From a virus, in IMG/VR virus record IMGVR_UViG_3300025082_000006, positions 1 to 64,000 of that record: a stretch of DNA of 64,000 bases; one strand, written 5' to 3'. The notes under the pieces were generated by a model. It made no database searches. It was not told the DNA's origin and was given only the letters and a program-made list of their open reading frames with translations. Each line of letters opens with the position of its first letter. Position 1 is the stretch's first letter. Below, piece after piece: positions 2,202 through 30,789 of this stretch. A program made the position numbers and the translations under genes.

Positions 2202-3770
2202 TTACTGCTCTATAATCGCACAGTTTGTTGTGATTAAAGTTGAAGAAACTGATGCTGCGTTCTGTAATGCACATCTTGTAACTTTTACTGGGTCTATAAT
2301 TCCCTTTTCCACCAGGTCAATCAGTTTGTTCTCTATGAAATCGAACCCGGTTGTTCCTTTTTTATTCTTTACTTTTGAAATAATTATATCTGCTGATTCC
2401 CCCGCGTTTAATGACATTTGAATGAGCGGTGCTTTGATGGCTTCCAAAATAATTTGGACCCCTAACCTTTGGTCATCATTTATAGTTTTAACTTTAAGAT
2501 TTTGGCCGGCTCTTAAAAGCGCAACCCCTCCGCCGGGAACAATTCCTTCTAATTGTGCTGACTTGACTGCTTCTAAAGCGTCTTCAACTCGATGTTTTTT
2601 CTCTACCATTTCTATTTCAGTGGCTGCGCCAACGCGAATAATTGCAATCCCACTGGCTAATCTTGTTATTCGCTCTTGGATTCTTTCGCATTCATGTAAA
2701 CTTTCTGTTTGGGAAAGTTCTGCTTTCAATAAATCAATTTGTCTTTCTACTTCAGATAAATCGCCATCTCCGCCTACTATTGTTGTAAAAATCTTTGAGC
2801 ATTCAAAAGTTTTTGCTTTCCCAAAATGAGTCAATTTTACATCCCGAAGTCTTAAATTGTTTTGGCGCGTAATGAATGTCGCTCCCACTGATAATGCTAA
2901 ATCTTTGAGGATGTTGCGTCTTTCTTCTCCATAACGCGGAGCTTTAACTGCGACCACTCTAAGAGTGCCGCGCATTGCATTCATAATTAAAGCGGCCAAT
3001 GCTTGGCCTTCAATATTTTCTGCAACAATAACAAATGGTCTATTTTCTCGTGCGGCAATTTCTAATGCTGGCATCATATCTTCGACGTTTTCTACTTTTT
3101 CGTCTGTTATCAAAAATAAAGCGTCATCATATTTTACAACCCCTCGTTTTTCATCTGTGATAAATGCAGTAGCTAAGTACCCAGAATCAAAACGAAAACC
3201 TTCCGCTATGTCAAGGCTTGTTTCTAATGAGCGAGCCTCTTCTACTGTGATGGCTCCATCTTTTCCGGCCAAATCTACTGCTTTTGCAATCAAATTACCA
3301 ATAACTTCATCATTATTAGCTGAAATTTTTGCAATGTGGGCTATGTCATCGACAGACATGATAGGGGTCGCCATTTCTTTGAGCTTTGTTACGATGGCGG
3401 CGACTGCTTTGTCCATTCCTCTTTTTAATTCAATTGGAGCCGAGCCAGCCATTAAATATTTTTGTGCTTCTTGGAGAATTGCTCTTGCTAAAACAACAGA
3501 AGTTGTTGTGCCGTCGCCTGCTTCTGCATTTGTTTGGGCTGCCGCTTGTTTTATAATTTGAGCGCCTACATTTTCAAAGGGGTCTTCAAGTTCAACAAAT
3601 TGTGCGACAGTGACGCCATCTTTGGTAATTACAGGATTTTGTTCGGGATGGTGTAGAATAACATTTCTGCCTCTTGGCCCCAAAGTAGAAGCGACATTGT
3701 CGGCTAGAAGATTTACTCCTTTTAGAATTTTTTGTTGTAAATTGGTGCCTGATTCGTATCGACGTGACAT
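2202..3770 (-). CDS. groL: Phage chaperonin GroEL (Hsp60)
   Basis: A complete 522-aa group I chaperonin that refolds proteins in an ATP-driven double-ring cage. Visible landmarks are the nucleotide loop LGPRGRNV (30-37), DGTTTSVV from residue 86, the apical domain in the middle, RVEDAL containing the ATPase aspartate, and GIVPGGGVALLRA. The usual Gly-Gly-Met tail of bacterial GroEL is absent, as is common in phage versions. It has its own host-type promoter (3788-3816) and a GGAGG site. A GroES-like protein is encoded at 18866-19144. The likely role is folding of capsid or tail proteins. Confidence 0.97.
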   Translation of the reverse strand: MSRRYESGTNLQQKILKGVNLLADNVASTLGPRGRNVILHHPEQNPVITKDGVTVAQFVELEDPFENVGAQIIKQAAAQTNAEAGDGTTTSVVLARAILQEAQKYLMAGSAPIELKRGMDKAVAAIVTKLKEMATPIMSVDDIAHIAKISANNDEVIGNLIAKAVDLAGKDGAITVEEARSLETSLDIAEGFRFDSGYLATAFITDEKRGVVKYDDALFLITDEKVENVEDMMPALEIAARENRPFVIVAENIEGQALAALIMNAMRGTLRVVAVKAPRYGEERRNILKDLALSVGATFITRQNNLRLRDVKLTHFGKAKTFECSKIFTTIVGGDGDLSEVERQIDLLKAELSQTESLHECERIQERITRLASGIAIIRVGAATEIEMVEKKHRVEDALEAVKSAQLEGIVPGGGVALLRAGQNLKVKTINDDQRLGVQIILEAIKAPLIQMSLNAGESADIIISKVKNKKGTTGFDFIENKLIDLVEKGIIDPVKVTRCALQNAASVSSTLITTNCAIIEQ

Positions 3771-3787: not shown

Positions 3788-3816
3788 AATATAATGTATT
3801 ATATATGAATTGTCAA
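3788..3816 (-). promoter_or_regulatory. Sigma70-type promoter for groEL
   Basis: Minus strand: TTGACA (3816-3811), a 17-bp spacer and TATATT (3793-3788), followed by CGGAGG and the groEL start. It matches the optimal host housekeeping promoter layout. Confidence 0.85.
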
Positions 3817-5552: not shown

Positions 5553-6203
5553 TCATACTATAATATCTGCGATCCCATATTCCACGGCTTCTTTCGCATC
5601 TAAATAAACATTTACTTTTCTGTCTAGTAGTTTTTTTAGATGCCTCTTTGTCATGTCTGTTTCTTGTACAAGCGCATCAATATGCTGTTCTTGAATCCAA
5701 CGCATTTCTTCCATCTCATTCTCAAGATTATGGAGTGCGCCCCACTGGTCTCCCCTGATGCTGTGTAGCATTATTCGACAATTTTTACCAATACTTCTCT
5801 GCCCTTTTGTCCCTGCTGCCAAAAGTAAAACGCCAGCAGACATTACTTTTCCAAGGCCATATGTTTTTATGTCGCAATCCTCTCTTACCATTCGCATCGT
5901 ATCATAAATAGCAAACATCCCGCGGGCATCGCCTCCCCATGTTGAGATATAAAAATCAATGGGTTTATATATGGTTTTTTTAATCGGAGAATTGGGATCT
6001 TCTGGGTCTTCATATATCTCCTCTTTTCCATAATCTTTGAGAGCAATGAAAGATTGAGCTATTTCAGCAGTCAGTTCTTCATCTAAATTACCAAATAGGC
6101 CTATCATACGAATTTTGGAGGCCTCTTTTGGAGCATCTAAAAAAATTAAAGATGTGAGGTCTTCTTTTGAATCTTTTTTAGTTTCTTTGTCTTTTTTTGC
6201 CAT
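5553..6203 (-). CDS. clpP: ClpP-family serine protease
   Basis: A 216-aa ClpP-like peptidase. The catalytic serine is S122 in GKVMSAGVLLLAAG, the histidine H147 in MLHSIRG, and the aspartate most likely D194 (LLDRK), which aligns before the conserved EAVEYG segment. The oxyanion GGD motif is at residues 90-92. An acidic loop (EDPEDPNSP, 65-73) is inserted relative to bacterial ClpP. No Clp ATPase is visible in this window, so it may use the host ClpX/ClpA or act alone, for example in head maturation or host takeover. Confidence 0.95.
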   Translation of the reverse strand: MAKKDKETKKDSKEDLTSLIFLDAPKEASKIRMIGLFGNLDEELTAEIAQSFIALKDYGKEEIYEDPEDPNSPIKKTIYKPIDFYISTWGGDARGMFAIYDTMRMVREDCDIKTYGLGKVMSAGVLLLAAGTKGQRSIGKNCRIMLHSIRGDQWGALHNLENEMEEMRWIQEQHIDALVQETDMTKRHLKKLLDRKVNVYLDAKEAVEYGIADIIV

Positions 6204-8491: not shown

Positions 8492-9520
8492 TTATTGTTT
8501 CCCTAAAATGTGGGTAGAGCTTTCAATTAAGCTGGCTCTTGTTTGGCGAATAAATTTTGCCTTCGCTTGTAATTCAAGGATTGTGCGCGCGCCTGAATAT
8601 GATAGGCCGGATGTAATCCCGTTTTTTAAATCTTCTAGTATCTCTTCCACTCGCCCCTTATAGGGGATCAACGTGGAAACACCTTCGTTGGAAGAGAACT
8701 TGCCGCGCCAGTCTAGCTGCGCCTCTTTGCTCGCCATCCCTCGGTATTCTTTTTGTACCCCTTTTAAGGTAACTATCTTCTCTCCAGGTGACTCATCGGT
8801 TCCGGCCAACATCGAACCAAGCATCACAAAGTCTGCTCCAGCAGCGAAAGCTTTTACGATGTCGCCGCTCGTTCGTATGCCGCCGTCTGCAATGATTCTA
8901 GTGGAGCGATCTGTTTTAGCACAATCAAATAAAGTTTGAAGGCCCGGCATTCCATGGCCGGTTTGAATTCTAGTGGAGCAAATTGATCCACCTCCTATAT
9001 TGCATCGTATACTATCTGCTCCCCAGTCCGCCAAATCGTTGAAAGCCTGAAGGGTTGCAACATTTCCAGCCATAATATGTACACTATTATTTAGCAAGTC
9101 TTTAATAGATTTAATGGCGCGTTCCATTAATTTGTGATGACCGTGAGCTACATCCACACACAAAACTCTTGCGCCGGTGTGTGCCAAGCGAGAGGCTCTC
9201 TTTAAATAATCTCCCGTCACACCTACCGCAGCCCCAATGACTTCAAAATTCTCCCACGCATCTTTAACTATCTTACATTGCTCTTCAATCGAATTATAAC
9301 GATGAATAATTCCTAACCCTCCCGCGGTGGCCATTGCTATTGCCATCTTAGGCCCAGTTACAGTATCCATTGGAGAAGATATAATGGGGAGATCTAATTT
9401 TATTTTGGGGCTGTCTCCTAAAGAATTTCCAATATAGATCTCTTTACGGCTTTCTATGTCTGAATATTGAGGCGTTAACAAAACATCATCATATGTAAGG
9501 GCTTCTTTAAGTTTCTCCAT
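8492..9520 (-). CDS. IMP dehydrogenase / GMP reductase family enzyme
   Basis: A 342-aa TIM-barrel purine enzyme without CBS domains. The active-site loop GGGSICSTR carries the nucleophilic Cys181. [13 protein letters not shown] binds the phosphate, and YRGMASKEA marks the mobile flap. Length resembles GMP reductase, but [11 protein letters not shown] and [11 protein letters not shown] look more like IMP dehydrogenase, so the reaction (IMP to XMP, or GMP to IMP) is unresolved. The ATG at 9520 with GGGAGA upstream is preferred over an in-frame TTG one codon earlier. It fits with dUTPase and ribonucleotide reductase in reshaping nucleotide pools. Confidence 0.9.
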
Positions 9521-9707
9521 CAATAATCTCCCAATTCTCTTTTATTAATTTTAACGGCACCGTAGATGTGCGGCCATCGCCAGCGAACAAGACAGTTGCC
9601 CACGACCGGTCGTACCCGGGATCGCGAACGTCTTTGTCTACCACGACACTTATAACAAGAGCCGTTGAATCGTTTCTTCTGTGTTTTATCAAGTCACCGG
9701 CTTGCAT
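9507..9707 (-). CDS. Hypothetical small SH3-like protein
   Basis: A 66-aa protein when started at ATG 9707 (MQAGDLIKHR), which has GGAAAAG upstream. A TTG six codons earlier would extend it. Alternating short strands suggest a small barrel of the kind common in phage accessory genes. It overlaps the neighbours on both sides by 14 nt. Confidence 0.6.
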   Translation of the reverse strand: MQAGDLIKHRRNDSTALVISVVVDKDVRDPGYDRSWATVLFAGDGRTSTVPLKLIKENWEIIDGET

Positions 9708-21310: not shown

Positions 21311-22678
21311 TTACTTGTTCCTTTTCTTCCTGTAGTTTTTGTATTTTTCTTTAAGTGACTCTTCTTGTTTCTTTACTTCATTCTGCTTGATCTCATCATA
21401 AGTTTCAATTTGAGGAAGCACTTCTATCTTAACATTTGCAGTGTCCATGAAAATTGGGTAAACCAATCCGTCCGGACCGTTTCTGTTTTTGGCAACAAAC
21501 ATTCTTCCTCCGTTTGTATTTTTATGCTGAATAGTTCTAGAGATGGAAAATATAAAATCGGCTACAAAACATTTGTTAAAAGCTTCCGATATCGCCTCCA
21601 TCGTAATTACTTCTGCGTTTAAGCCGCCGCGGTTTGTTTGGGAAGCTGTCCAGATCGGACATTCGAATTCTTGGGCCAAACCTCTTAGCTCTTCATAAAT
21701 AGATTCCAACTGATGTCTTTTCTCATCTTTTTTTGATTTTGCACGTAATAAATCTCCATAATCTACGATAATCATATTGGGAAAAATATCGCGCTGGCGT
21801 AACCTCTCTAAATGATTACGAAGTGTCTCGACACCCGCAGATTTGGTGGGGTATTCTTTTACAATTAGCTGCCCATCTAAATCTTTGATCTCCTCATAAA
21901 TTTCATCTTTACGATTAAATATCTCTCTGAGTGGAATGCCTGTAATACAACTATCATAGCGGGTGGCAACGGCAACATCCGCCAACTCTAAAGTGTAGTG
22001 TACGACGGTTTTACCTTCTTTGATCGCCTGCGCGCCTAAATGAACGAGGGCCATTGATTTGCCCGCCCCAGTTGGCGCAATAACAACGCCAAGCTCTCCA
22101 ATCCCTAGCCCCCCTTTACACAAATCATCAATAACTTCCCAGCCAGTGGTAATTGGACCACGGGCTATGATTTGAAATCTTGCTTCAAAGTCCTTGAGGT
22201 AATGATATCCAAAATCATTATTGCAACCCAACTTCATCGCATCATTAATTAATTTTTGTACATCTTCAAAAGATGATTTCTTAAGGAGTGGAACAGATTT
22301 TAATATTGCTTCCTTCAGCACTTGCTTTTTACAGAAATCAAGTGCAATATCTTTAATATACTTTGCATCTTGTACTTCTGTTTTTAAAAGACGTGCAAAG
22401 AAATCTCTCACTTGTTTCTGGACAACTTCGTTCTCTTCGAGTACTTCCGTGCGGAGAATTGTAGTCAGGATCGAGGGCGATGGTTGCAATTCGTATTTCT
22501 CTTTATAGTCAAATATCTTCTTTACAAACACCTGAAGATATGCTAGTTCTAGGAAATTAATATTTAACACTTCCTTCATTTGATCGGCAAACTCTCTATC
22601 GTAAAGAATTAACTGACACATGTTCTCCTGGAATGCTTTTCCAAACTGAGAGAAGTCTTCTTGTTCATTATAGTTCAA
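21311..22678 (-). CDS. Replicative DNA helicase (DnaB/gp41-like)
   Basis: A 455-aa hexameric helicase. The helical N-terminal domain (residues 1-150) would contact primase; the RecA-like motor has Walker A APTGAGKS at 201-208, Walker B MIIVDYGDLL, and downstream SQTNRGG with the sensor region. The start is TTG at 22678 with AGGAAA upstream. It is adjacent to ribonucleotide reductase, so dNTP supply and fork movement are co-expressed. Confidence 0.95.
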   Translation of the reverse strand: MNYNEQEDFSQFGKAFQENMCQLILYDREFADQMKEVLNINFLELAYLQVFVKKIFDYKEKYELQPSPSILTTILRTEVLEENEVVQKQVRDFFARLLKTEVQDAKYIKDIALDFCKKQVLKEAILKSVPLLKKSSFEDVQKLINDAMKLGCNNDFGYHYLKDFEARFQIIARGPITTGWEVIDDLCKGGLGIGELGVVIAPTGAGKSMALVHLGAQAIKEGKTVVHYTLELADVAVATRYDSCITGIPLREIFNRKDEIYEEIKDLDGQLIVKEYPTKSAGVETLRNHLERLRQRDIFPNMIIVDYGDLLRAKSKKDEKRHQLESIYEELRGLAQEFECPIWTASQTNRGGLNAEVITMEAISEAFNKCFVADFIFSISRTIQHKNTNGGRMFVAKNRNGPDGLVYPIFMDTANVKIEVLPQIETYDEIKQNEVKKQEESLKEKYKNYRKKRNK

Positions 22679-22687
22679 ATATGTTTC

Positions 22688-22867
22688 CTATCGTGATCGA
22701 ACCCATCGGCAGCGAGTTTCTTTTTCGCCTTTCTTGTTTACTTTCGTGGTACAGACTTCTTCCCAAGTTTCAACTACTTGTATAGGTCTTACGCCCGTTG
22801 CAGGATACGGAATGTGGCACCCTCCGCAAAAAATCATCCCCGCTATTAATACAATAATCTTTTTCAT
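22688..22867 (-). CDS. Small lipoprotein, 59 aa
   Basis: Found by reading the gap. It begins MKKIIVLIAGMIFCGGC, a signal peptide with a lipidation cysteine (C17, or C14), followed by HIPYPATGVRPIQVVETWEE and a CTTKVNKKG... basic end. AAGGAGAATAAA precedes the ATG. The mature start resembles that of the 97-aa lipoprotein at 25319 (YP-TG-...VVE...VC). Likely an envelope lipoprotein of the infected cell; role unknown. Confidence 0.8.
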   Translation of the reverse strand: MKKIIVLIAGMIFCGGCHIPYPATGVRPIQVVETWEEVCTTKVNKKGEKETRCRWVRSR

Positions 22868-22903
22868 TTTATTCTCCTTTGTTAAGTTTGCCGGTTATAT
22901 AAT

Positions 22904-23713
22904 TTATCTTTGCCTTTTGCCCGAATAAGCGCATCCAGAACTCCTTCGACTAGTTTTGTAAGCGTCCTCCGCACAACTGATGTTTTCTATAAGTGCAAAC
23001 AAAGTTTTATGTTTTCCCCCCAGGTGGTTTTTGTATTTTTCTAATTTTTCTCTATCTAAAAGTTCGGATAAAACAAAGTGAAAAGAATCGCGATAAGATT
23101 TTTTCGCTAGTAGACTCTTTAGCTCGTTGCAGAGTTTCTCCTCCTCCCCATGTACATTATGTTTCACGTGGAGAGCGAAGTCATTTTCATCCCACTCTTT
23201 ACGAAGATAATCGTAAAACCCGAGATGTTGGAGTCGCTCCACCCGTTCCTGATAATTAAGAATCTTCCATTGTTTATCATATGCTTCATTATAGCGCTTA
23301 ATGTGCTTCTCTACTTTCTTGGATGACCAATCTAGATGGTATTCGTTCAAAAGATTATGTTTCTTTTTCTTGTGTCGGTATCCTTCGCAAAAAGACCACT
23401 CTATATACTCTTCTCGCTTTTCTTTATCTGTCATAGAAGCCAACTCCGCTTTTCTTTCCGCTGCCTGTTGCCGACATCCTACCGCAAATTCACAGTCACC
23501 TTTAAAGATATCAACGCCAAATCCTGCGCCATCGCAACCTGGCTGTTTCGTAGAGCCGCACCCTTCTCTATTACCAAGAAAATCAACTTTCAATTGATTG
23601 GCTGGAAATATATCATAACAATGTAAGCACCATAACTCATCCTGTTCTCTTATTTCTTCTCCAATGAATCCTGAATCTTTTTTTTCTATCAGAATGTTAT
23701 TAGTTTTGTTCAT
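22904..23713 (-). CDS. Hypothetical protein with N-terminal Cys/zinc region
   Basis: A 269-aa protein not recognised. The first 80 residues hold CLHCYDIF, GCGSTKQPGCDGAG and GDCEF, likely zinc-binding. The rest is Lys/Glu-rich helical with a KHIKRYNEAYDKQWK segment. It lies just downstream of the tRNA-Ile gene (22-nt gap) and likely shares its promoter. Confidence 0.6.
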   Translation of the reverse strand: MNKTNNILIEKKDSGFIGEEIREQDELWCLHCYDIFPANQLKVDFLGNREGCGSTKQPGCDGAGFGVDIFKGDCEFAVGCRQQAAERKAELASMTDKEKREEYIEWSFCEGYRHKKKKHNLLNEYHLDWSSKKVEKHIKRYNEAYDKQWKILNYQERVERLQHLGFYDYLRKEWDENDFALHVKHNVHGEEEKLCNELKSLLAKKSYRDSFHFVLSELLDREKLEKYKNHLGGKHKTLFALIENISCAEDAYKTSRRSSGCAYSGKRQR

Positions 23714-23735
23714 TTAATTTTCTCCTTTATTAAGT

Positions 23736-23808
23736 ACGCCCGCCTGGACTTGAACCAGGGACATCCACCTTATAAGAGTGGCACTCTAACCTACTGAGTT
23801 ACGGGCGC
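23736..23808 (-). tRNA. tRNA-Ile (anticodon UAU)
   Basis: A 73-nt cloverleaf on the minus strand. The acceptor stem (GCGCCCG with CGGGCGU), the D arm, the anticodon stem CCACU/GGUGG with loop CUUAUAA, and the T arm CCUGG-UUCAAGU-CCAGG all pair. Anticodon UAU reads AUA, a rare codon in many hosts. CCA is not encoded. A perfect host-type promoter lies upstream. Confidence 0.95.
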
Positions 23809-23824
23809 GTAATTTCACATTTTA

Positions 23825-23853
23825 ATTATAAATGAATAATTTTTGTTTGTCAA
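23825..23853 (-). promoter_or_regulatory. Consensus sigma70 promoter before tRNA-Ile
   Basis: TTGACA (23853-23848), 17 bp, then TATAAT (23830-23825) on the minus strand. Both hexamers are exact consensus, placed about 17 nt before the tRNA 5' end. Confidence 0.9.
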
Positions 23854-23861
23854 TGGGCTTC

Positions 23862-24653
23862 CTAAGATAATAAATTAATCGTAGTTGGGAAATTTCCTTT
23901 ATATGTATAGTTGCCTATATGCTGCAGCCTGATCCACGGACAAAGCCACACTTTGAGGCCTGCTTTTCTTGAATAGCGGCAAAACATATAGTCTTCAGAG
24001 AGATAGCGCGCGCTATCAGGATCGATTACAGTATCAAAGTAGGCTACCATCTCTTGCTTATAGAATTCTTCATCTTTTCCAGATGTGTCAGAAACGTATT
24101 TAAGTTCTGGGTATGCATTTTCAAATTTTTCGAAGCACTCTCGCTTGATCATCATAAAGCCGGTGCCAGCTTCCGCCACTTCCATTGGAAGAGTGAGAGA
24201 CATTTTATTATCAGCAGTGGGAGTGAAAAAGAAATCGCCGGTAAAGCTTTCTATTTCTCCGCTTTTGGAGCCAAGATTTAAATTTCCCTTAGACAACGCT
24301 TGCATTACTCTATCCCATCTGATAGTCTTTTTAGAGTACGGCCCACACATAATATCGCGGTCGTAGGCTAACATTTTTAAAACATCAATCGGGTCAAATA
24401 CAATATCGGCATCTATAAACATCATGTGAGTATAGTCTGTTTTTAAAAATTCGTGTACGCATACATTTCTTGCACGCGTCACTAAACTCTCATTAAAAAG
24501 AGTGTACAATTCAAAGGGCACTCCCAACTCTAAACACATTCTTTGGAGACGCATACATGCTTGCATGTATCCTCCATTACATTGATTCCCATACATTGGA
24601 GTAGCAATGTAAAGACTTTTTCCTTTTAACTTTGATAGATCTAATTGTTTCAT
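23862..24653 (-). CDS. Glycosyltransferase (GT-A fold)
   Basis: A 263-aa sugar transferase. GKSLYIATPMYG starts the nucleotide-sugar fold, NESLVTRARNVCVHEFL follows, and the metal-binding DxD is D81-A-D83 in HMMFIDADIVFD. SEDYMFCRYSRKAG supplies the acidic base region. It may modify DNA, surface sugars or a virion protein; the substrate cannot be read. It overlaps the small upstream gene by 4 nt. Confidence 0.85.
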   Translation of the reverse strand: MKQLDLSKLKGKSLYIATPMYGNQCNGGYMQACMRLQRMCLELGVPFELYTLFNESLVTRARNVCVHEFLKTDYTHMMFIDADIVFDPIDVLKMLAYDRDIMCGPYSKKTIRWDRVMQALSKGNLNLGSKSGEIESFTGDFFFTPTADNKMSLTLPMEVAEAGTGFMMIKRECFEKFENAYPELKYVSDTSGKDEEFYKQEMVAYFDTVIDPDSARYLSEDYMFCRYSRKAGLKVWLCPWIRLQHIGNYTYKGNFPTTINLLS

Positions 24654-24871
24654 TCTTCGTTTTCTCCTGTTTTATTTAGTTCATATATTCTTGGTCTACT
24701 TTTTGAATATGTTACAGCGACGTGAAATGAATACGTACTATTTTTATTCTTTTTGATACCCACTTCTAAGTTTTTACATTTACAAAAAACTTCTGGGCTT
24801 TTCTCATGAAAGTCCTGTTGTCTAAACGCCTCATTGCATTCTAAACATTCTATTATTAAATAATTTTCCAT
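24650..24871 (-). CDS. Small Cys-pair protein, 73 aa
   Basis: Hypothetical 73-aa protein with two Cys pairs (CLEC at 9-12 and CKC at 30-32) forming a possible zinc ribbon, and a basic strand-rich tail. Overlap with the glycosyltransferase start (ATGA) suggests coupling. Function unknown. Confidence 0.6.
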   Translation of the reverse strand: MENYLIIECLECNEAFRQQDFHEKSPEVFCKCKNLEVGIKKNKNSTYSFHVAVTYSKSRPRIYELNKTGENEE

Positions 24872-24891
24872 ATCTCTTTTGGGCCTTTCTG

Positions 24892-24963
24892 TACCCCCGC
24901 CAGGATTCGAACCTGGAATAAAGGTTTAGAAGACCTTTGTGATATCCCTTTCACCACGGAGGT
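24892..24963 (-). tRNA. tRNA-Arg (anticodon UCU)
   Basis: A 72-nt cloverleaf on the minus strand: acceptor ACCUCCG with CGGGGGU, D stem GUGA/UCAC, anticodon stem AAGGU/ACCUU with loop CUUCUAA, T stem CCAGG/CCUGG. It reads AGA. CCA is not encoded. It lies 5 nt after the Cys-rich exported protein gene, so it is likely processed from that mRNA. Confidence 0.95.
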
Positions 24964-24968
24964 ATGCA

Positions 24969-25217
24969 TTATTTATAATACTCGCATTTTTCTTCTGTCT
25001 GGTACCACTCACATGTGGTATAATCAACGCACCAATATTCTCCGCACGTCTTTGTATTTTCATACCGCTCCCACAAACAACAGCGAGTATCACAAATTGT
25101 AGCAGAATTTACCCCGTAAGGTGCGTTGTAATCGCATGGGTACTCGGCAGGCGTTGACACCGGAGATGAAAAAACAGCTGTGTTCCAGGTTAGTAACCAA
25201 ATAAATAATAATTTCAT
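24969..25217 (-). CDS. Exported Cys-rich protein, 82 aa
   Basis: The N terminus MKLLFIWLLTWNTAVFSS is a signal peptide with no lipobox. The mature part carries ten cysteines (such as CDTRCCLWER, CGEYWCVDY, CEWY, KCEYYK), suggesting a disulfide-knotted periplasmic protein. There is little ribosome binding site; the stop of the 35-aa lipoprotein gene is 10 nt upstream, so coupling is likely. No family recognised. Confidence 0.7.
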   Translation of the reverse strand: MKLLFIWLLTWNTAVFSSPVSTPAEYPCDYNAPYGVNSATICDTRCCLWERYENTKTCGEYWCVDYTTCEWYQTEEKCEYYK

Positions 25218-25227
25218 TTTTTTATAA

Positions 25228-25335
25228 CTATCTTTTTGAATAAGGAAGCGATTTTTCAGGATCGCAGTCGTCTACTAGCATTTGGCAGCCGTTCAAGAAG
25301 CCCACAATAATCAATAGCCTAGTAACAGTATTCAT
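25228..25335 (-). CDS. Tiny lipoprotein, 35 aa
   Basis: Read from the gap: MNTVTRLLIIVGFLNGC is a compact signal peptide with the lipobox LNGC, followed by only 18 mature residues (QMLVDDCDPEKSLPYSKR). It overlaps the end of the 97-aa lipoprotein gene by 17 nt in another frame, with GGGA about 8 nt upstream. Such very small lipoproteins recall lysis peptides or exclusion factors, but the role is unknown. Confidence 0.65.
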   Translation of the reverse strand: MNTVTRLLIIVGFLNGCQMLVDDCDPEKSLPYSKR

Positions 25336-25612
25336 CTACCAGTTCCCAGCTGCAATAAGTGGCCAGCCCTACCTGCGTCTCATAAATACACCATGTTTCT
25401 TCACATGTTGTGTAGTAATAAGGATAATCAATTATCCATGTGCAACAACCATCCCAACATGTCCACACCTCTTCATAATAATATGGTGTATCATCATAAG
25501 TACAAACTTCGACCACTTCGATATGAGGGCCAATTGCGACTGAGCCTGTTGGTGTATAAATTTCACATCCTATGCAAGCTAATGCAAATAAGGATATTAA
25601 TATTGTTTTCAT
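25319..25612 (-). CDS. Cys- and Tyr-rich lipoprotein, 97 aa
   Basis: Signal peptide MKTILISLFALACIGC with lipidation at C16 (or C13). The mature region is rich in Cys, Tyr and Trp (VVEVCTYDDTPYYYEEVWTC, WDGCCTWII, TTCEETWCIYE), implying several disulfides in the periplasm or outer envelope. AGGAGGAAAGAA precedes the ATG, which overlaps the exonuclease stop. The start of the mature part resembles the 59-aa lipoprotein at 22688. Confidence 0.8.
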   Translation of the reverse strand: MKTILISLFALACIGCEIYTPTGSVAIGPHIEVVEVCTYDDTPYYYEEVWTCWDGCCTWIIDYPYYYTTCEETWCIYETQVGLATYCSWELVDEYCY

Positions 25613-26571
25613 TTCTTTCCTCCTAATACTATTCTTTTAAAAGTGGTATATAAATCTAACCAACTTGTTTTTCCAATTCCATCTTCTAGCATCATACCAT
25701 CTGTGGAAGTTTTGTCAAATGTTAATTCAGTATTCCTAATAGTATATTTGATTTTTTGTTTATTTTGTACAGAAATGCTGGGGCTGTATAATTGCATCAA
25801 TTTATAGTTCTCTTCGATCACTTCTTGACTCTCCACAATGTTTTGATATGCTTTCAACGTCGAGTTAGCATTCTCGCAGAACTCTTTAACCTCTTGAATC
25901 GTATATGCTTTTTCTTCAGCAAGAAAGGGCAAGCGCTTGGCTAACGTTGGTAAGCCGACGCCTTTTACGCCATCGAGGTTATCGCTTTTGTCCCCCACTA
26001 TTGCTCGCGCCAACGCAAAGTTGGTGGGGTGAATCCCAAATTTCTCTACAATCATATTCTTATTTAATATTTCATGTTGCGTGGGTCTGTATGCCAACGT
26101 CTCATTGTCGAGGAGTTGGAAAAAATCTTTATCGCTAGAGACGATGACTTTCTGCCACCCCTTGAAGTCTGGCATTTGGGCGACGAAAGAGATGACGTCA
26201 TCGGCTTCCACTTCGTCAAAGACTAGCTGGGTTACTGGAAAATTATTTAAATATTCCATCAGGCGCATTTGTTGCCAAATTTTATTTTGAAGCTCCTCTT
26301 GGGCGGTGAGAGTTCTAATGTCGCGGTTCAAGCGCAGAGGCTTGCGCCCCTCCTTGTAATTTTTGTTTACAAGCTTGCGCTTTCTGCTGCCGCCTTTGCC
26401 ATCCCAACAGATTACAACCTTATCAGGTTTGACCTCTCGGCAAAGTTTTTGTAGAATTTTAAGAAAGCCCGCAGTCCCACCAATGGGATCTCCATTGGGG
26501 GATAAAGACGGGTTGACGATGTACCCTCGCAAAAATTGGTTGAGGGCATCAATTATCATTACTCGTTTCAT
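25609..26571 (-). CDS. 5'-3' exonuclease (FEN / PolI N-terminal type)
   Basis: A 320-aa flap nuclease or RNase H analogous to T4 Rnh and the N-terminal domain of PolI. Metal sites are seen in MIIDALN, VICWDGKGGSRKR, EVEADDVI, SSDKDFFQL and GDKSDNLDGVKGVG, the last being the helix-hairpin-helix that holds DNA. It likely removes Okazaki primers. It is detached from the family A polymerase at 30789-31973. Confidence 0.94.
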   Translation of the reverse strand: MKRVMIIDALNQFLRGYIVNPSLSPNGDPIGGTAGFLKILQKLCREVKPDKVVICWDGKGGSRKRKLVNKNYKEGRKPLRLNRDIRTLTAQEELQNKIWQQMRLMEYLNNFPVTQLVFDEVEADDVISFVAQMPDFKGWQKVIVSSDKDFFQLLDNETLAYRPTQHEILNKNMIVEKFGIHPTNFALARAIVGDKSDNLDGVKGVGLPTLAKRLPFLAEEKAYTIQEVKEFCENANSTLKAYQNIVESQEVIEENYKLMQLYSPSISVQNKQKIKYTIRNTELTFDKTSTDGMMLEDGIGKTSWLDLYTTFKRIVLGGKK

Positions 26572-26683: not shown

Positions 26684-26770
26684 TGGTGGCTGGAGCGGGG
26701 CTCGAACCCGCACACCCTTACAGATAACGGATTTTAAGTCCGTTGCGTCTACCAATTCCGCCACCCAGCC
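26684..26770 (-). tRNA. tRNA-Leu (anticodon UAA)
   Basis: An 87-nt class II tRNA on the minus strand with a long variable arm. Acceptor GGCUGGG pairs with UCCAGCC, anticodon stem ACGGA/UCCGU encloses CUUAAAA (UAA, reading UUA), and T arm GCGGG/CCCGC. The 3' CCA is encoded, unlike in the other two tRNAs. The end of the upstream protein gene runs 22 nt into it. Confidence 0.97.
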
Positions 26771-27204
26771 ATTTTTTCCGATGTAATCGTAGAAAAAGCA
26801 TCGGTCGTATTTATTACGTCAAAGAATCCTTTTCCGTACTCGGGGGCAACCGGTGGTTCTTCTGCGATCACGAGCGGAAGAAGATCTTCTTCCGGAAGAG
26901 GCTCTTCTTCCAGAATATTCTGGAAGAATTCTTCCAGAATATATTGTTTCTCAGCGTTGGTCTCCTCTAAGCTAACATCATCCATAAAAGATTCTTTCTT
27001 ATATAATGTGGGAGACGCGACAGAATGGATCTCAAGTTGTTTATATACATCTTCTGAACGGCTGGCGCGCGCAGCGGGTTCGGCTGTCCACCAAAAAAGC
27101 GAACACAAAACAAGAGCCACGTGAAAGACTGCAGATGTTGTTAAAGATGCTAATAGATTAATGTTAAATAGGTGGTTATATTTTTTATAAGTTATAAGGT
27201 TCAT
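26749..27204 (-). CDS. Acidic membrane-anchored protein (TonB N-terminus-like layout)
   Basis: A 151-aa protein: N-terminal membrane segment (about residues 16-38, LLASLTTSAVFHVALVLCSL), then an acidic Pro/Glu linker. This layout recalls TonB-type or virion-envelope proteins, but no function is certain. A host-type promoter lies before it (27233-27260). Its last codons (GWRNW and stop) are read from the 5' end of tRNA-Leu. Confidence 0.65.
   Translation of the reverse strand: MNLITYKKYNHLFNINLLASLTTSAVFHVALVLCSLFWWTAEPAARASRSEDVYKQLEIHSVASPTLYKKESFMDDVSLEETNAEKQYILEEFFQNILEEEPLPEEDLLPLVIAEEPPVAPEYGKGFFDVINTTDAFSTITSEKMAGWRNW
26881..26940. repeat. Cluster of nested palindromes inside the acidic membrane-protein gene
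   Basis: Within about 60 bp lie AAGATCTT (26881-26888), CTTCCGGAAG (26889-26898), the perfect 20-bp palindrome CTTCCAGAATATTCTGGAAG (26907-26926) and GGAAGAATTCTTCC (26922-26935). They are within a coding stretch rich in Glu codons, so some symmetry could follow from GAA/TTC use, but the density is unusual. Confidence 0.7.
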
Positions 27205-29916: not shown

Positions 29917-29945
29917 ATAATACTATAAATTTAAATCTTTGTCAA
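29917..29945 (-). promoter_or_regulatory. Sigma70-type promoter for ssb
   Basis: TTGACA (29945-29940), 17 bp, TATTAT (29922-29917) on the minus strand, in front of ssb and partly inside the 3' end of the tubulin-like gene. Confidence 0.85.
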
Positions 29946-30789
29946 GTCTAAATTTATTATTTTGAACTATTGTACTATTCAATAAACTAAATGCGTAAAC
30001 ATCATCATAGTTTGTTGAAAAAACTCCGTAGCTCATCTTCATTTTATCATGTTGTTTCTGTTCTTTTAATTGCTCTCCGATCTTTTTCAGCAGTGTTCCA
30101 TCGGTTTGAAGTATTTTTTCAGGCACCCCATAATAATATCTCTTTTCGCGCGGGATGTCAAGATCAAAAAACATTTTTTCTTCCCCAGTTTCGTAATTCA
30201 ATAAACTAAAAGTTGACATTCGAGCTGTCTCTGCAAAGGGAGCGAACGTGGTGGCTTCTGCTTCCGAGTTGTTAAATACATTCATCATATGAATTGTGTA
30301 TACAATTAATTCATTTAATTTACTAAAGTGATCTCGGATGGGAACGTCCCCGACAATTTTAGTTACTTCTACATTATCTACTAAATATATTCTTTCAAAC
30401 AACGCGCATCGAGCGTATTCTTGAAGCACATGAAAAACAATGTTATCGTTGAGAGTTTTCAATTCTGGAAGTAACGCCCGATCCGGTCTAATATATAAAA
30501 TGCTTATTTGACATTTATGTTGTATTTGCTCTAAAATTCTAAGGATGGCTGACGAAATAAAGCCGCAGCTTGTTACAAACAACACATCCCCTTTTACATT
30601 TTTAAAAAAGCTTTTTAGGTTGGGGCAGTTTTCTTCATACTTTTCAGGATGGTCATATTTTGGAAAATTGTAGCAGCGCGGTGCTTTCTTAAGTCCCGCT
30701 CTTATTTTATATATTTTATATTGAGGATATACAGCAAATTGGTCTGCTATGTTACAGCCGGCTTTTCCTAACCCAATGATCGTTTGCAT
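29923..30789 (-). CDS. Divergent tubulin/FtsZ-like protein (tentative)
   Basis: A 288-aa protein. It opens with QTIIGLGKAGCNIADQF, like the first nucleotide loop of FtsZ (GVGGAGGNAVNRM). DVLFVTSCGFISSAILRILE (69-86) takes the place of the glycine-rich T4 loop, which is lost, and a segment near 159-190 (LNELIVYTIHMMN, TFAPFAETARMST) resembles the T7/helix H7 region. Without the G-rich loop, GTP binding is doubtful; a plain Rossmann protein is the alternative. It overlaps the polymerase stop by 1 nt. Confidence 0.5.
   Translation of the reverse strand: MQTIIGLGKAGCNIADQFAVYPQYKIYKIRAGLKKAPRCYNFPKYDHPEKYEENCPNLKSFFKNVKGDVLFVTSCGFISSAILRILEQIQHKCQISILYIRPDRALLPELKTLNDNIVFHVLQEYARCALFERIYLVDNVEVTKIVGDVPIRDHFSKLNELIVYTIHMMNVFNNSEAEATTFAPFAETARMSTFSLLNYETGEEKMFFDLDIPREKRYYYGVPEKILQTDGTLLKKIGEQLKEQKQHDKMKMSYGVFSTNYDDVYAFSLLNSTIVQNNKFRLDKDLNL

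What the first reader, a model, noticed from the sequence alone, without database searches (positions are those of the whole stretch)
22688..25612. Cluster of small exported Cys-rich proteins and lipoproteins
Four small genes (59, 82, 35 and 97 aa) carry signal peptides; three have lipobox-like sites and all are Cys-containing, two densely so. They sit around tRNA-Arg and tRNA-Ile. Two mature N termini share a YP-TG-VVE-VC pattern. A phage investing in periplasmic lipoproteins suggests superinfection exclusion or envelope remodelling, and the set looks undescribed.
Basis: partly seen in the sequence, partly recalled or inferred. Interest (0 to 1): 0.75.

Follow-up and report, generated by a model that had tools for sequence, protein, structure and literature searches.

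The report
New disulfide-rich phage lipoprotein family
An uncultured marine virus of bacteria carries a small operon of secreted, probably membrane-anchored proteins that belong to a previously unnamed family built on eight conserved cysteines; they most likely modify the infected cell's outer envelope, perhaps to shut out competing viruses, but the target is unknown.

Summary
Three of the four genes (97, 35 and 82 aa) are tandem paralogues of one new family. Its mature domain has eight invariant cysteines, two invariant tryptophans and an otherwise variable sequence: C…C-x3-CC…C-x-E-x-WC…C-x-W…CY. I recovered 36 distinct members, all in viral contigs, mostly between an exonuclease gene and the replicative helicase gene. 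All full-length members except the window's 82-aa protein carry a signal ending in a +1 cysteine. Cysteine losses are mostly even-numbered, dN/dS is about 0.1, and successive paralogues overlap by the same 17 nt in five lineages. No cellular homologue, no Pfam, PHROG, NCBIfam or PADLOC family and no known fold was found. The 35-aa gene is a truncated stub of an 80-83 aa paralogue. The 59-aa gene is a separate, conserved lipoprotein family; its claimed N-terminal similarity to the 97-aa protein is not significant. Best functional reading: disulfide-knotted outer-membrane or periplasmic lipoproteins, made early, that act on a host envelope protein in the manner of T5 Llp or Rtp45 (superinfection exclusion). 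That step is inferred, not shown.

The parts
25319..25612 (-). p97: prototype member. Signal MKTILISLFALACIGC, lipid Cys at residue 16 (conserved; C13 is not), variable Pro/Val tether, 8-Cys domain
   Evidence: orthologues follow exo in the same order; dN/dS about 0.1
25228..25335 (-). p35: truncated second paralogue (signal + LNGC lipobox + 18 aa, stop at codon 36); starts 17 nt before the end of p97
   Evidence: nt alignment to L020 6887-7138 ends at nt 104; full-length versions in L003, L020, L195, L139; overlap geometry
24969..25217 (-). p82: third paralogue with all 8 Cys, hydrophobic N terminus but no lipobox Cys (predicted secreted, possibly soluble periplasmic)
   Evidence: close relatives only in its own lineage
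22688..22867 (-). p59: separate small lipoprotein family (YPxxGxRPxxVVETxExxCT...CRWxRxR) with one potential disulfide
   Evidence: 10 loci; dN/dS 0.1-0.2; beside the 8-Cys lipoproteins in L133, L134, L139
24650..24871 (-). p73: small Cx2C/CxC (zinc-ribbon-like) protein that also sits beside the lipoproteins where these lie elsewhere in the genome
   Evidence: L391, L393/L220, L154, L025, L003, L004
25691..25718 (-). sigma70-type promoter TTGACA-16-TATGAT, 106 nt upstream of the p97 start, inside the exo 3' end
   Evidence: kept in L003, L005, L009, L130 (11/12) and L004 (10/12), though the site lies in coding sequence
23825..23853 (-). perfect sigma70 consensus TTGACA-17-TATAAT in front of tRNA-Ile, p269, p59 and helicase
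25609..26571 (-). 5'-3' exonuclease (phrog_107), syntenic anchor upstream
21311..22678 (-). DnaB-like replicative helicase (phrog_19), syntenic anchor downstream
24891..24963 (-). tRNA-Arg(TCT)
23734..23808 (-). tRNA-Ile(TAT)

Best explanation
The 97/35/82-aa genes are tandem copies of a new phage family of small exported proteins. A signal peptide targets them out of the cytoplasm. In nearly all members a +1 Cys is lipidated (inferred), leaving a short disordered tether and a compact all-beta domain held by four disulfide bonds (inferred from eight invariant Cys and mostly even-numbered losses). They are probably transcribed early from a host-type sigma70 promoter and co-translated with the next paralogue through a 17-nt overlap (overlap shown, coupling inferred). 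Most likely they sit on the periplasmic face of the outer membrane and bind a host envelope protein, locking it in a state that blocks attachment or DNA entry by further phages. That is the way T5 Llp and Rtp45 work. p59 is a second, unrelated lipoprotein of the same locus. The identity statement (exported, disulfide-rich phage family, mostly lipoproteins) I hold at about 0.9; the superinfection-exclusion mechanism at about 0.4.
For: Eight invariant Cys and two invariant Trp across 21 aligned members, with p97 only 27-42% identical to the non-orthologous members. 36 distinct members, nearly all with a signal and a +1 Cys, most with exactly 8 Cys after it. Losses are mostly even: L139_102 lost one Cys of the CC pair and the WC Cys together; L391a lost four; L109b lost two positions. 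One related phage encodes a thioredoxin-fold (AhpC-TSA) lipoprotein with a WCDYC motif between p59 and a family member (L133 6162-6746). AF2 gives an all-beta domain with pLDDT about 85 outside the tether. dN/dS is about 0.1. The overlap of successive paralogues is 17 or 20 nt at seven junctions in six loci. Strong sigma70-type promoters are enriched on the coding strand (8 vs about 0.6 expected), one of them at -106 of p97. Known analogues: T5 Llp is a small lipoprotein, periplasmic, with one disulfide, and acts on FhuA (PMC9586334); Rtp45 is a 6-kDa lipoprotein with one disulfide acting on LptDE (PMC12685063).
Against: No host, receptor or phenotype is known, and no sequence match to any PHROG family, exclusion proteins included. 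Purifying rather than diversifying selection within orthologues gives no sign of an arms race, and two to three tandem copies are more than known exclusion systems need. p82 lacks a lipobox. Promoter evidence is consensus matching only. The gene lies in the replication region, not beside a receptor-binding protein as Llp does. Some members have odd Cys counts (7 or 9), so a free thiol or an intermolecular bond is not excluded.
Confidence: 0.42

Rival explanations
1. General envelope remodelling: the proteins reinforce or re-balance the host outer membrane or its oxidative-folding and proteolysis pathways during infection, without excluding other phages. They would act with other exported proteins of the same phages (a 163-aa predicted outer-membrane protein, a TlpA/ResA-like lipoprotein, a trypsin-like lipoprotein).
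For: In related phages, family members lie beside a 163-aa signal-peptide protein with Myxococcota homologues (L005, L009, L130, L392), a thioredoxin-fold lipoprotein (L133) or a Trypsin_2 lipoprotein (L392/L178, L010). Copies are tandem and probably co-translated.
Against: None of these partners lies in this part of the window and none is constant across lineages; neighbourhood may reflect a common insertion site.
Confidence: 0.25
2. Protease or enzyme inhibitor: the eight-Cys knot inhibits a periplasmic host protease or defence enzyme, or the phage's own trypsin-like lipoprotein.
For: Disulfide-rich small domains are common inhibitor scaffolds (general knowledge). In two lineages a trypsin-like lipoprotein gene lies just downstream and convergent to a family member (L392 8386-9165; L010 1991-1248).
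Against: No such protease near the genes in this window; no fold match to inhibitors at a meaningful E-value.
Confidence: 0.13
3. o-spanin: an outer-membrane lipoprotein that fuses the membranes at lysis.
For: T4-type o-spanins are Cys-containing, lack proline stretches and use disulfides; LNGC is a known deviant o-spanin lipobox (PMC6139136). p151 nearby is a single-pass membrane protein.
Against: The o-spanins described there do not carry an eight-Cys domain in tandem copies. The same genome has a better i-spanin candidate (N-terminal TM + charged helical tail) and small holin-like TM proteins at about 65.2-66.9 kb, outside the window (L394). Promoter type suggests early expression.
Confidence: 0.06
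4. Host-derived cargo: ordinary secreted lipoproteins picked up from the host without a phage-specific role.
For: Neighbouring exported genes of related phages have bacterial homologues, best in the phylum of a Polyangiaceae MAG.
Against: No member in 247 + 237 + 71 sampled genomes of two phyla and one class, none among about 118 matches of the genome-collection pattern scan (capped). Strong purifying selection within phages and a fixed locus argue for a phage function.
Confidence: 0.08

Closest known systems
T5 Llp / Cor-type superinfection-exclusion lipoproteins (PMC9586334)
   Same: Small phage-encoded lipoprotein with an intramolecular disulfide; Llp acts from the periplasmic face of the outer membrane
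   Different: One disulfide, not four; single gene next to the receptor-binding protein gene; no sequence relation found; target FhuA known there, unknown here
Rtp45 of phage Rtp (PMC12685063)
   Same: About 6-kDa disulfide-containing exclusion lipoprotein with beta structure
   Different: One disulfide, acts on LptDE; no sequence relation found
Ltp of Streptococcus phage TP-J34 (PMC3952083)
   Same: Phage-encoded surface lipoprotein family for superinfection exclusion
   Different: Gram-positive host, temperate phage; no relation found
T4-like o-spanin PseT.2 (PMC6139136)
   Same: Outer-membrane lipoprotein with two conserved Cys in T4-like phages
   Different: Lysis role with a dedicated i-spanin partner; no eight-Cys domain or tandem copies

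Membership tests
Bacterial/phage lipoprotein (lipobox signal) | Basic n-region, hydrophobic h-region, [LVI][ASTVI][GAS]C or accepted deviant, conserved +1 Cys | tested here: met
   Most family members and p59; p82 does not meet it (no +1 Cys); p35 has LNGC, a deviant also seen in o-spanins
Bacterial/phage lipoprotein (lipobox signal) | Actual lipidation and outer-membrane localisation | not testable with these tools
   No signal-peptide predictor or experiment available
Cor/Llp superinfection-exclusion lipoproteins | Sequence homology to known members | tested here: not met
   No PHROG, Pfam, NCBIfam, PADLOC or PDB match
Cor/Llp superinfection-exclusion lipoproteins | Small lipoprotein with intramolecular disulfide | tested here: inconclusive
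   Eight invariant Cys and mostly even losses; disulfides not observed directly
Cor/Llp superinfection-exclusion lipoproteins | Blocks adsorption or DNA entry of a second phage | not testable with these tools
   Needs host and phage
Two-component spanin (o-spanin) | Partner i-spanin gene overlapping or adjacent | tested here: not met
   No i-spanin-like gene adjacent to p97/p82; spanin-like and holin-like genes lie at about 65.2-66.9 kb of the same genome. Spanin genes can also be separate, so this alone does not exclude the role
Eight-Cys phage lipoprotein family (proposed here) | C...C-x3-CC...C-x-E-x-WC...C-x-W...C | tested here: met
   p97 and p82 have all eight Cys; p35 has only the N-terminal part; p59 does not belong

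The most novel reading that the evidence does not exclude
A phage-only family of four-disulfide, mostly lipid-anchored proteins, produced early as translationally coupled paralogous pairs or triplets. Together with p59 and, in some phages, an outer-membrane protein, a thiol-disulfide lipoprotein and a lipoprotein protease, it forms a phage-encoded envelope-takeover module whose paralogues each block a different host surface receptor.
Probability: 0.15. Interest if true: 0.75.

Novelty: new variant of a known kind. Interest (0 to 1): 0.48.

Why it matters
Small exclusion lipoproteins are known mainly from coliphages and dairy phages. A widespread, structurally distinct four-disulfide family in uncultured marine T4-like phages gives a searchable motif for phage envelope effectors and a hint of a Myxococcota-type host. 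It also suggests that lytic marine phages rely on host oxidative protein folding in the periplasm. If each paralogue targets a different receptor, it would give a direct handle on phage-phage competition in the ocean.

Tried and rejected
Rejected: homology of the p59 and p97 N termini. Rejected: p35 as an intact micro-gene. Rejected: T4-late expression from the TATAAATA motif (8 sites vs 5.2 expected; one lies just upstream of tRNA-Arg and proves nothing). Tried without result: known families (Pfam, PHROGs, NCBIfam, PADLOC, PDB sequence). Foldseek against PDB and BFVD gave only short, weak matches (best E 0.098, none at E<=0.001). An alignment of all members was too divergent for the loci finder. 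The host was sought only through two neighbouring genes of related phages.
Full report
WHAT THE LOCUS IS. The window is 64 kb of a 71.1-kb viral record of a distant T4-like marine phage. Its terminase has only 44% identity to the nearest cultured phage and its helicase about 40%. The finding lies between a 5'-3' exonuclease gene (25609-26571, phrog_107) and the DnaB-like helicase gene (21311-22678, phrog_19), all on the - strand. Gene order in the direction of transcription: exo, p97, p35, p82, tRNA-Arg, p73, a glycosyltransferase-like protein (23862-24653), tRNA-Ile, p269, p59, helicase.

THE GENES ARE REAL. tblastn-confirmed p97 relatives occur in ten contigs, 68-100% identical, in nearly all cases directly or shortly after exo. 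Pairwise dN/dS of p97 orthologues is mostly 0.05-0.2, and of p59 0.10-0.21. An independent 5096-nt contig is identical to the window over its whole length. A lipobox screen alone would not have convinced: 3 hits in the window against 0-3 in shuffled sequence. Conservation of the export signal in diverged relatives does.

ONE FAMILY, EIGHT CYSTEINES. Aligning p97, p82 and the small ORFs found between exo and helicase in relatives reveals a shared mature domain: C...C-x3-CC...C-x-E-x-WC...C-x-W...CY. A degenerate DNA pattern of the core matched known members and nothing else in 132 fetched loci. A scan of the viral collection with it, followed by an HMM search of every reading frame, gave a sharp split between real members (E below 1e-4, almost all with an N-terminal signal) and chance matches (E above 5e-3, no signal). 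In total there are 36 distinct member sequences. Eight Cys and two Trp are invariant in the 21-member alignment, while p97 is only 27-42% identical to the non-orthologous members. Most members have exactly eight Cys after the +1 Cys. Where Cys are missing, the losses are mostly even: L139_102 lacks one of the CC pair and the WC Cys; L391a lacks four; L109b lacks two of the eight positions. This is what four disulfides predict, and suggests CC-WC as one pair. A few members have 7 or 9 Cys, so this remains inference. AF2 gives an all-beta core with pLDDT about 75-90 behind a disordered tether. No Foldseek match in PDB or BFVD reaches E of 0.001, and no family library holds the domain.

TANDEM PARALOGUES AND A BROKEN COPY. 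In L003, L020, L195, L139 and L391 a second member follows the first. Its ATG lies inside the end of the first gene with an overlap of 17 nt (20 nt in L139 and in the first junction of L391, which has three members in a row). The window keeps this geometry for p97/p35, but p35 matches the second paralogue only for 104 nt and then stops; 10 nt later p82 begins. So p35 is a truncated copy, and p82 a different member that has lost the +1 Cys but kept all eight domain Cys. Close relatives of p82 occur only in its own lineage.

p59 IS SEPARATE. p59 has its own conserved family (10 loci) and lies beside eight-Cys members in L133, L134 and L139. Profile comparison with the eight-Cys family gives no signal. 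The N-terminal resemblance to p97 scores no better than shuffled sequence for the window pair (P=0.23) and is marginal in relatives.

CONTEXT ACROSS PHAGES. In G010 (L391) and G019 (L220/L393) the family members lie elsewhere in the genome, yet a p73-like Cx2C/CxC protein is again adjacent, so the association is more than shared position. In other phages members neighbour further exported proteins: a 163-aa signal-peptide protein (L005, L009, L392; further downstream in L130), a thioredoxin-fold lipoprotein with WCDYC (L133), and a Trypsin_2 lipoprotein (L392/L178, L010). The 163-aa protein and the thioredoxin-fold lipoprotein have their best sampled cellular relatives in the phylum of a Polyangiaceae MAG: 4/170 genomes at 34-42% identity (against 0/166 in the class of a Granulosicoccaceae MAG), and 39/189 genomes at best E 6.5e-25 (against 3/185, 4/198 and 11/198 elsewhere). 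This is a weak host hint, taken from relatives and not from this phage. No eight-Cys member was found in 247 + 237 + 71 cellular genomes sampled.

EXPRESSION. The - strand carries eight sigma70-type sites with at least 11 of 12 matches, against about 0.6 per shuffled sequence. One is 106 nt before p97 and a perfect one precedes tRNA-Ile and the p59 side. The p97 site recurs in L003, L005, L009 and L130, but it lies in exo coding sequence. L378 and L109 have 11/12 sites in other contexts. This fits early, host-polymerase transcription; it is not proof.

MECHANISM. Shown: constrained, paralogous genes with an export signal and an invariant Cys framework, phage-only as far as searched. Inferred: lipidation, disulfides, early co-expression. 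[quoted passage not shown]), and Rtp45, which does so on LptDE (PMC12685063). Both are small lipoproteins with a disulfide. I therefore favour superinfection exclusion or receptor locking (about 0.4), ahead of broader envelope remodelling (0.25), an inhibitor role (0.13), host cargo (0.08) and a spanin role (0.06). Membership in the Cor/Llp family is not claimed: homology was tested and not found. The spanin reading is weakened because an i-spanin-like gene and small holin-like membrane proteins lie at about 65.2-66.9 kb of the same genome.

LIMITS. Pattern scans were capped, host and receptor are unknown, no signal-peptide predictor was available, and several contigs are fragments.

Noticed in passing
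window 26749-27204 (-); homologue L130 3059-3439: p151: single N-terminal TM (TTSAVFHVALVLCSLFWW) followed by a Glu/Pro-rich periplasmic-type tail. The TM resembles the SxxxH energising helix of TolA/TonB as I remember it; no Pfam hit. Could be a decoy for TolQR/ExbBD.
   Followed up: partly
L133 6162-6746: Phage-encoded thioredoxin-fold (AhpC-TSA) lipoprotein with WCDYC between p59 and an eight-Cys lipoprotein; best sampled cellular relatives in the phylum of a Polyangiaceae MAG.
   Followed up: partly
L005 735-1226; L392 7477-7968; L130 5138-5641: 163-aa signal-peptide protein, probably an outer-membrane protein, beside or near eight-Cys lipoproteins, with about 40% identical homologues in the same phylum.
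   Followed up: partly
L392 8386-9165 (-); L010 1991-1248 (-): Trypsin_2 lipoprotein encoded convergently just downstream of an eight-Cys lipoprotein in two lineages.
   Followed up: partly
window 24650-24871; L391 3491-3742; L220 663-896: p73, a small Cx2C/CxC protein, stays next to the lipoproteins even where these lie at another genome position.
   Followed up: partly
L129 7635-7973; L104 6452-6730; L109 7713-7973: Divergent branch of Cys-rich lipoproteins (CEGACCTF...TYC...CRW) in the same exo-helicase interval, outside the HMM threshold.
   Followed up: no
G000 65.2-66.9 kb (L394 2211-3927): Likely lysis region just outside the window: i-spanin-like protein with N-terminal TM and charged helical tail, plus small holin-like TM proteins, between fibre-like genes.
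   Followed up: no
window - strand, e.g. 23825-23853, 29917-29945, 30133-30161, 3788-3816, 1876-1905: Eight near-perfect sigma70 promoters on the coding strand against about 0.6 expected, in a T4-like phage.
   Followed up: partly
window 2202-3770, 5553-6203, 8492-9523: Phage GroEL-like, ClpP-like and IMP-dehydrogenase-like genes (by eye from the translations); related phages carry DnaK and ClpP next to the lipoproteins (L139, L392, L003).
   Followed up: no
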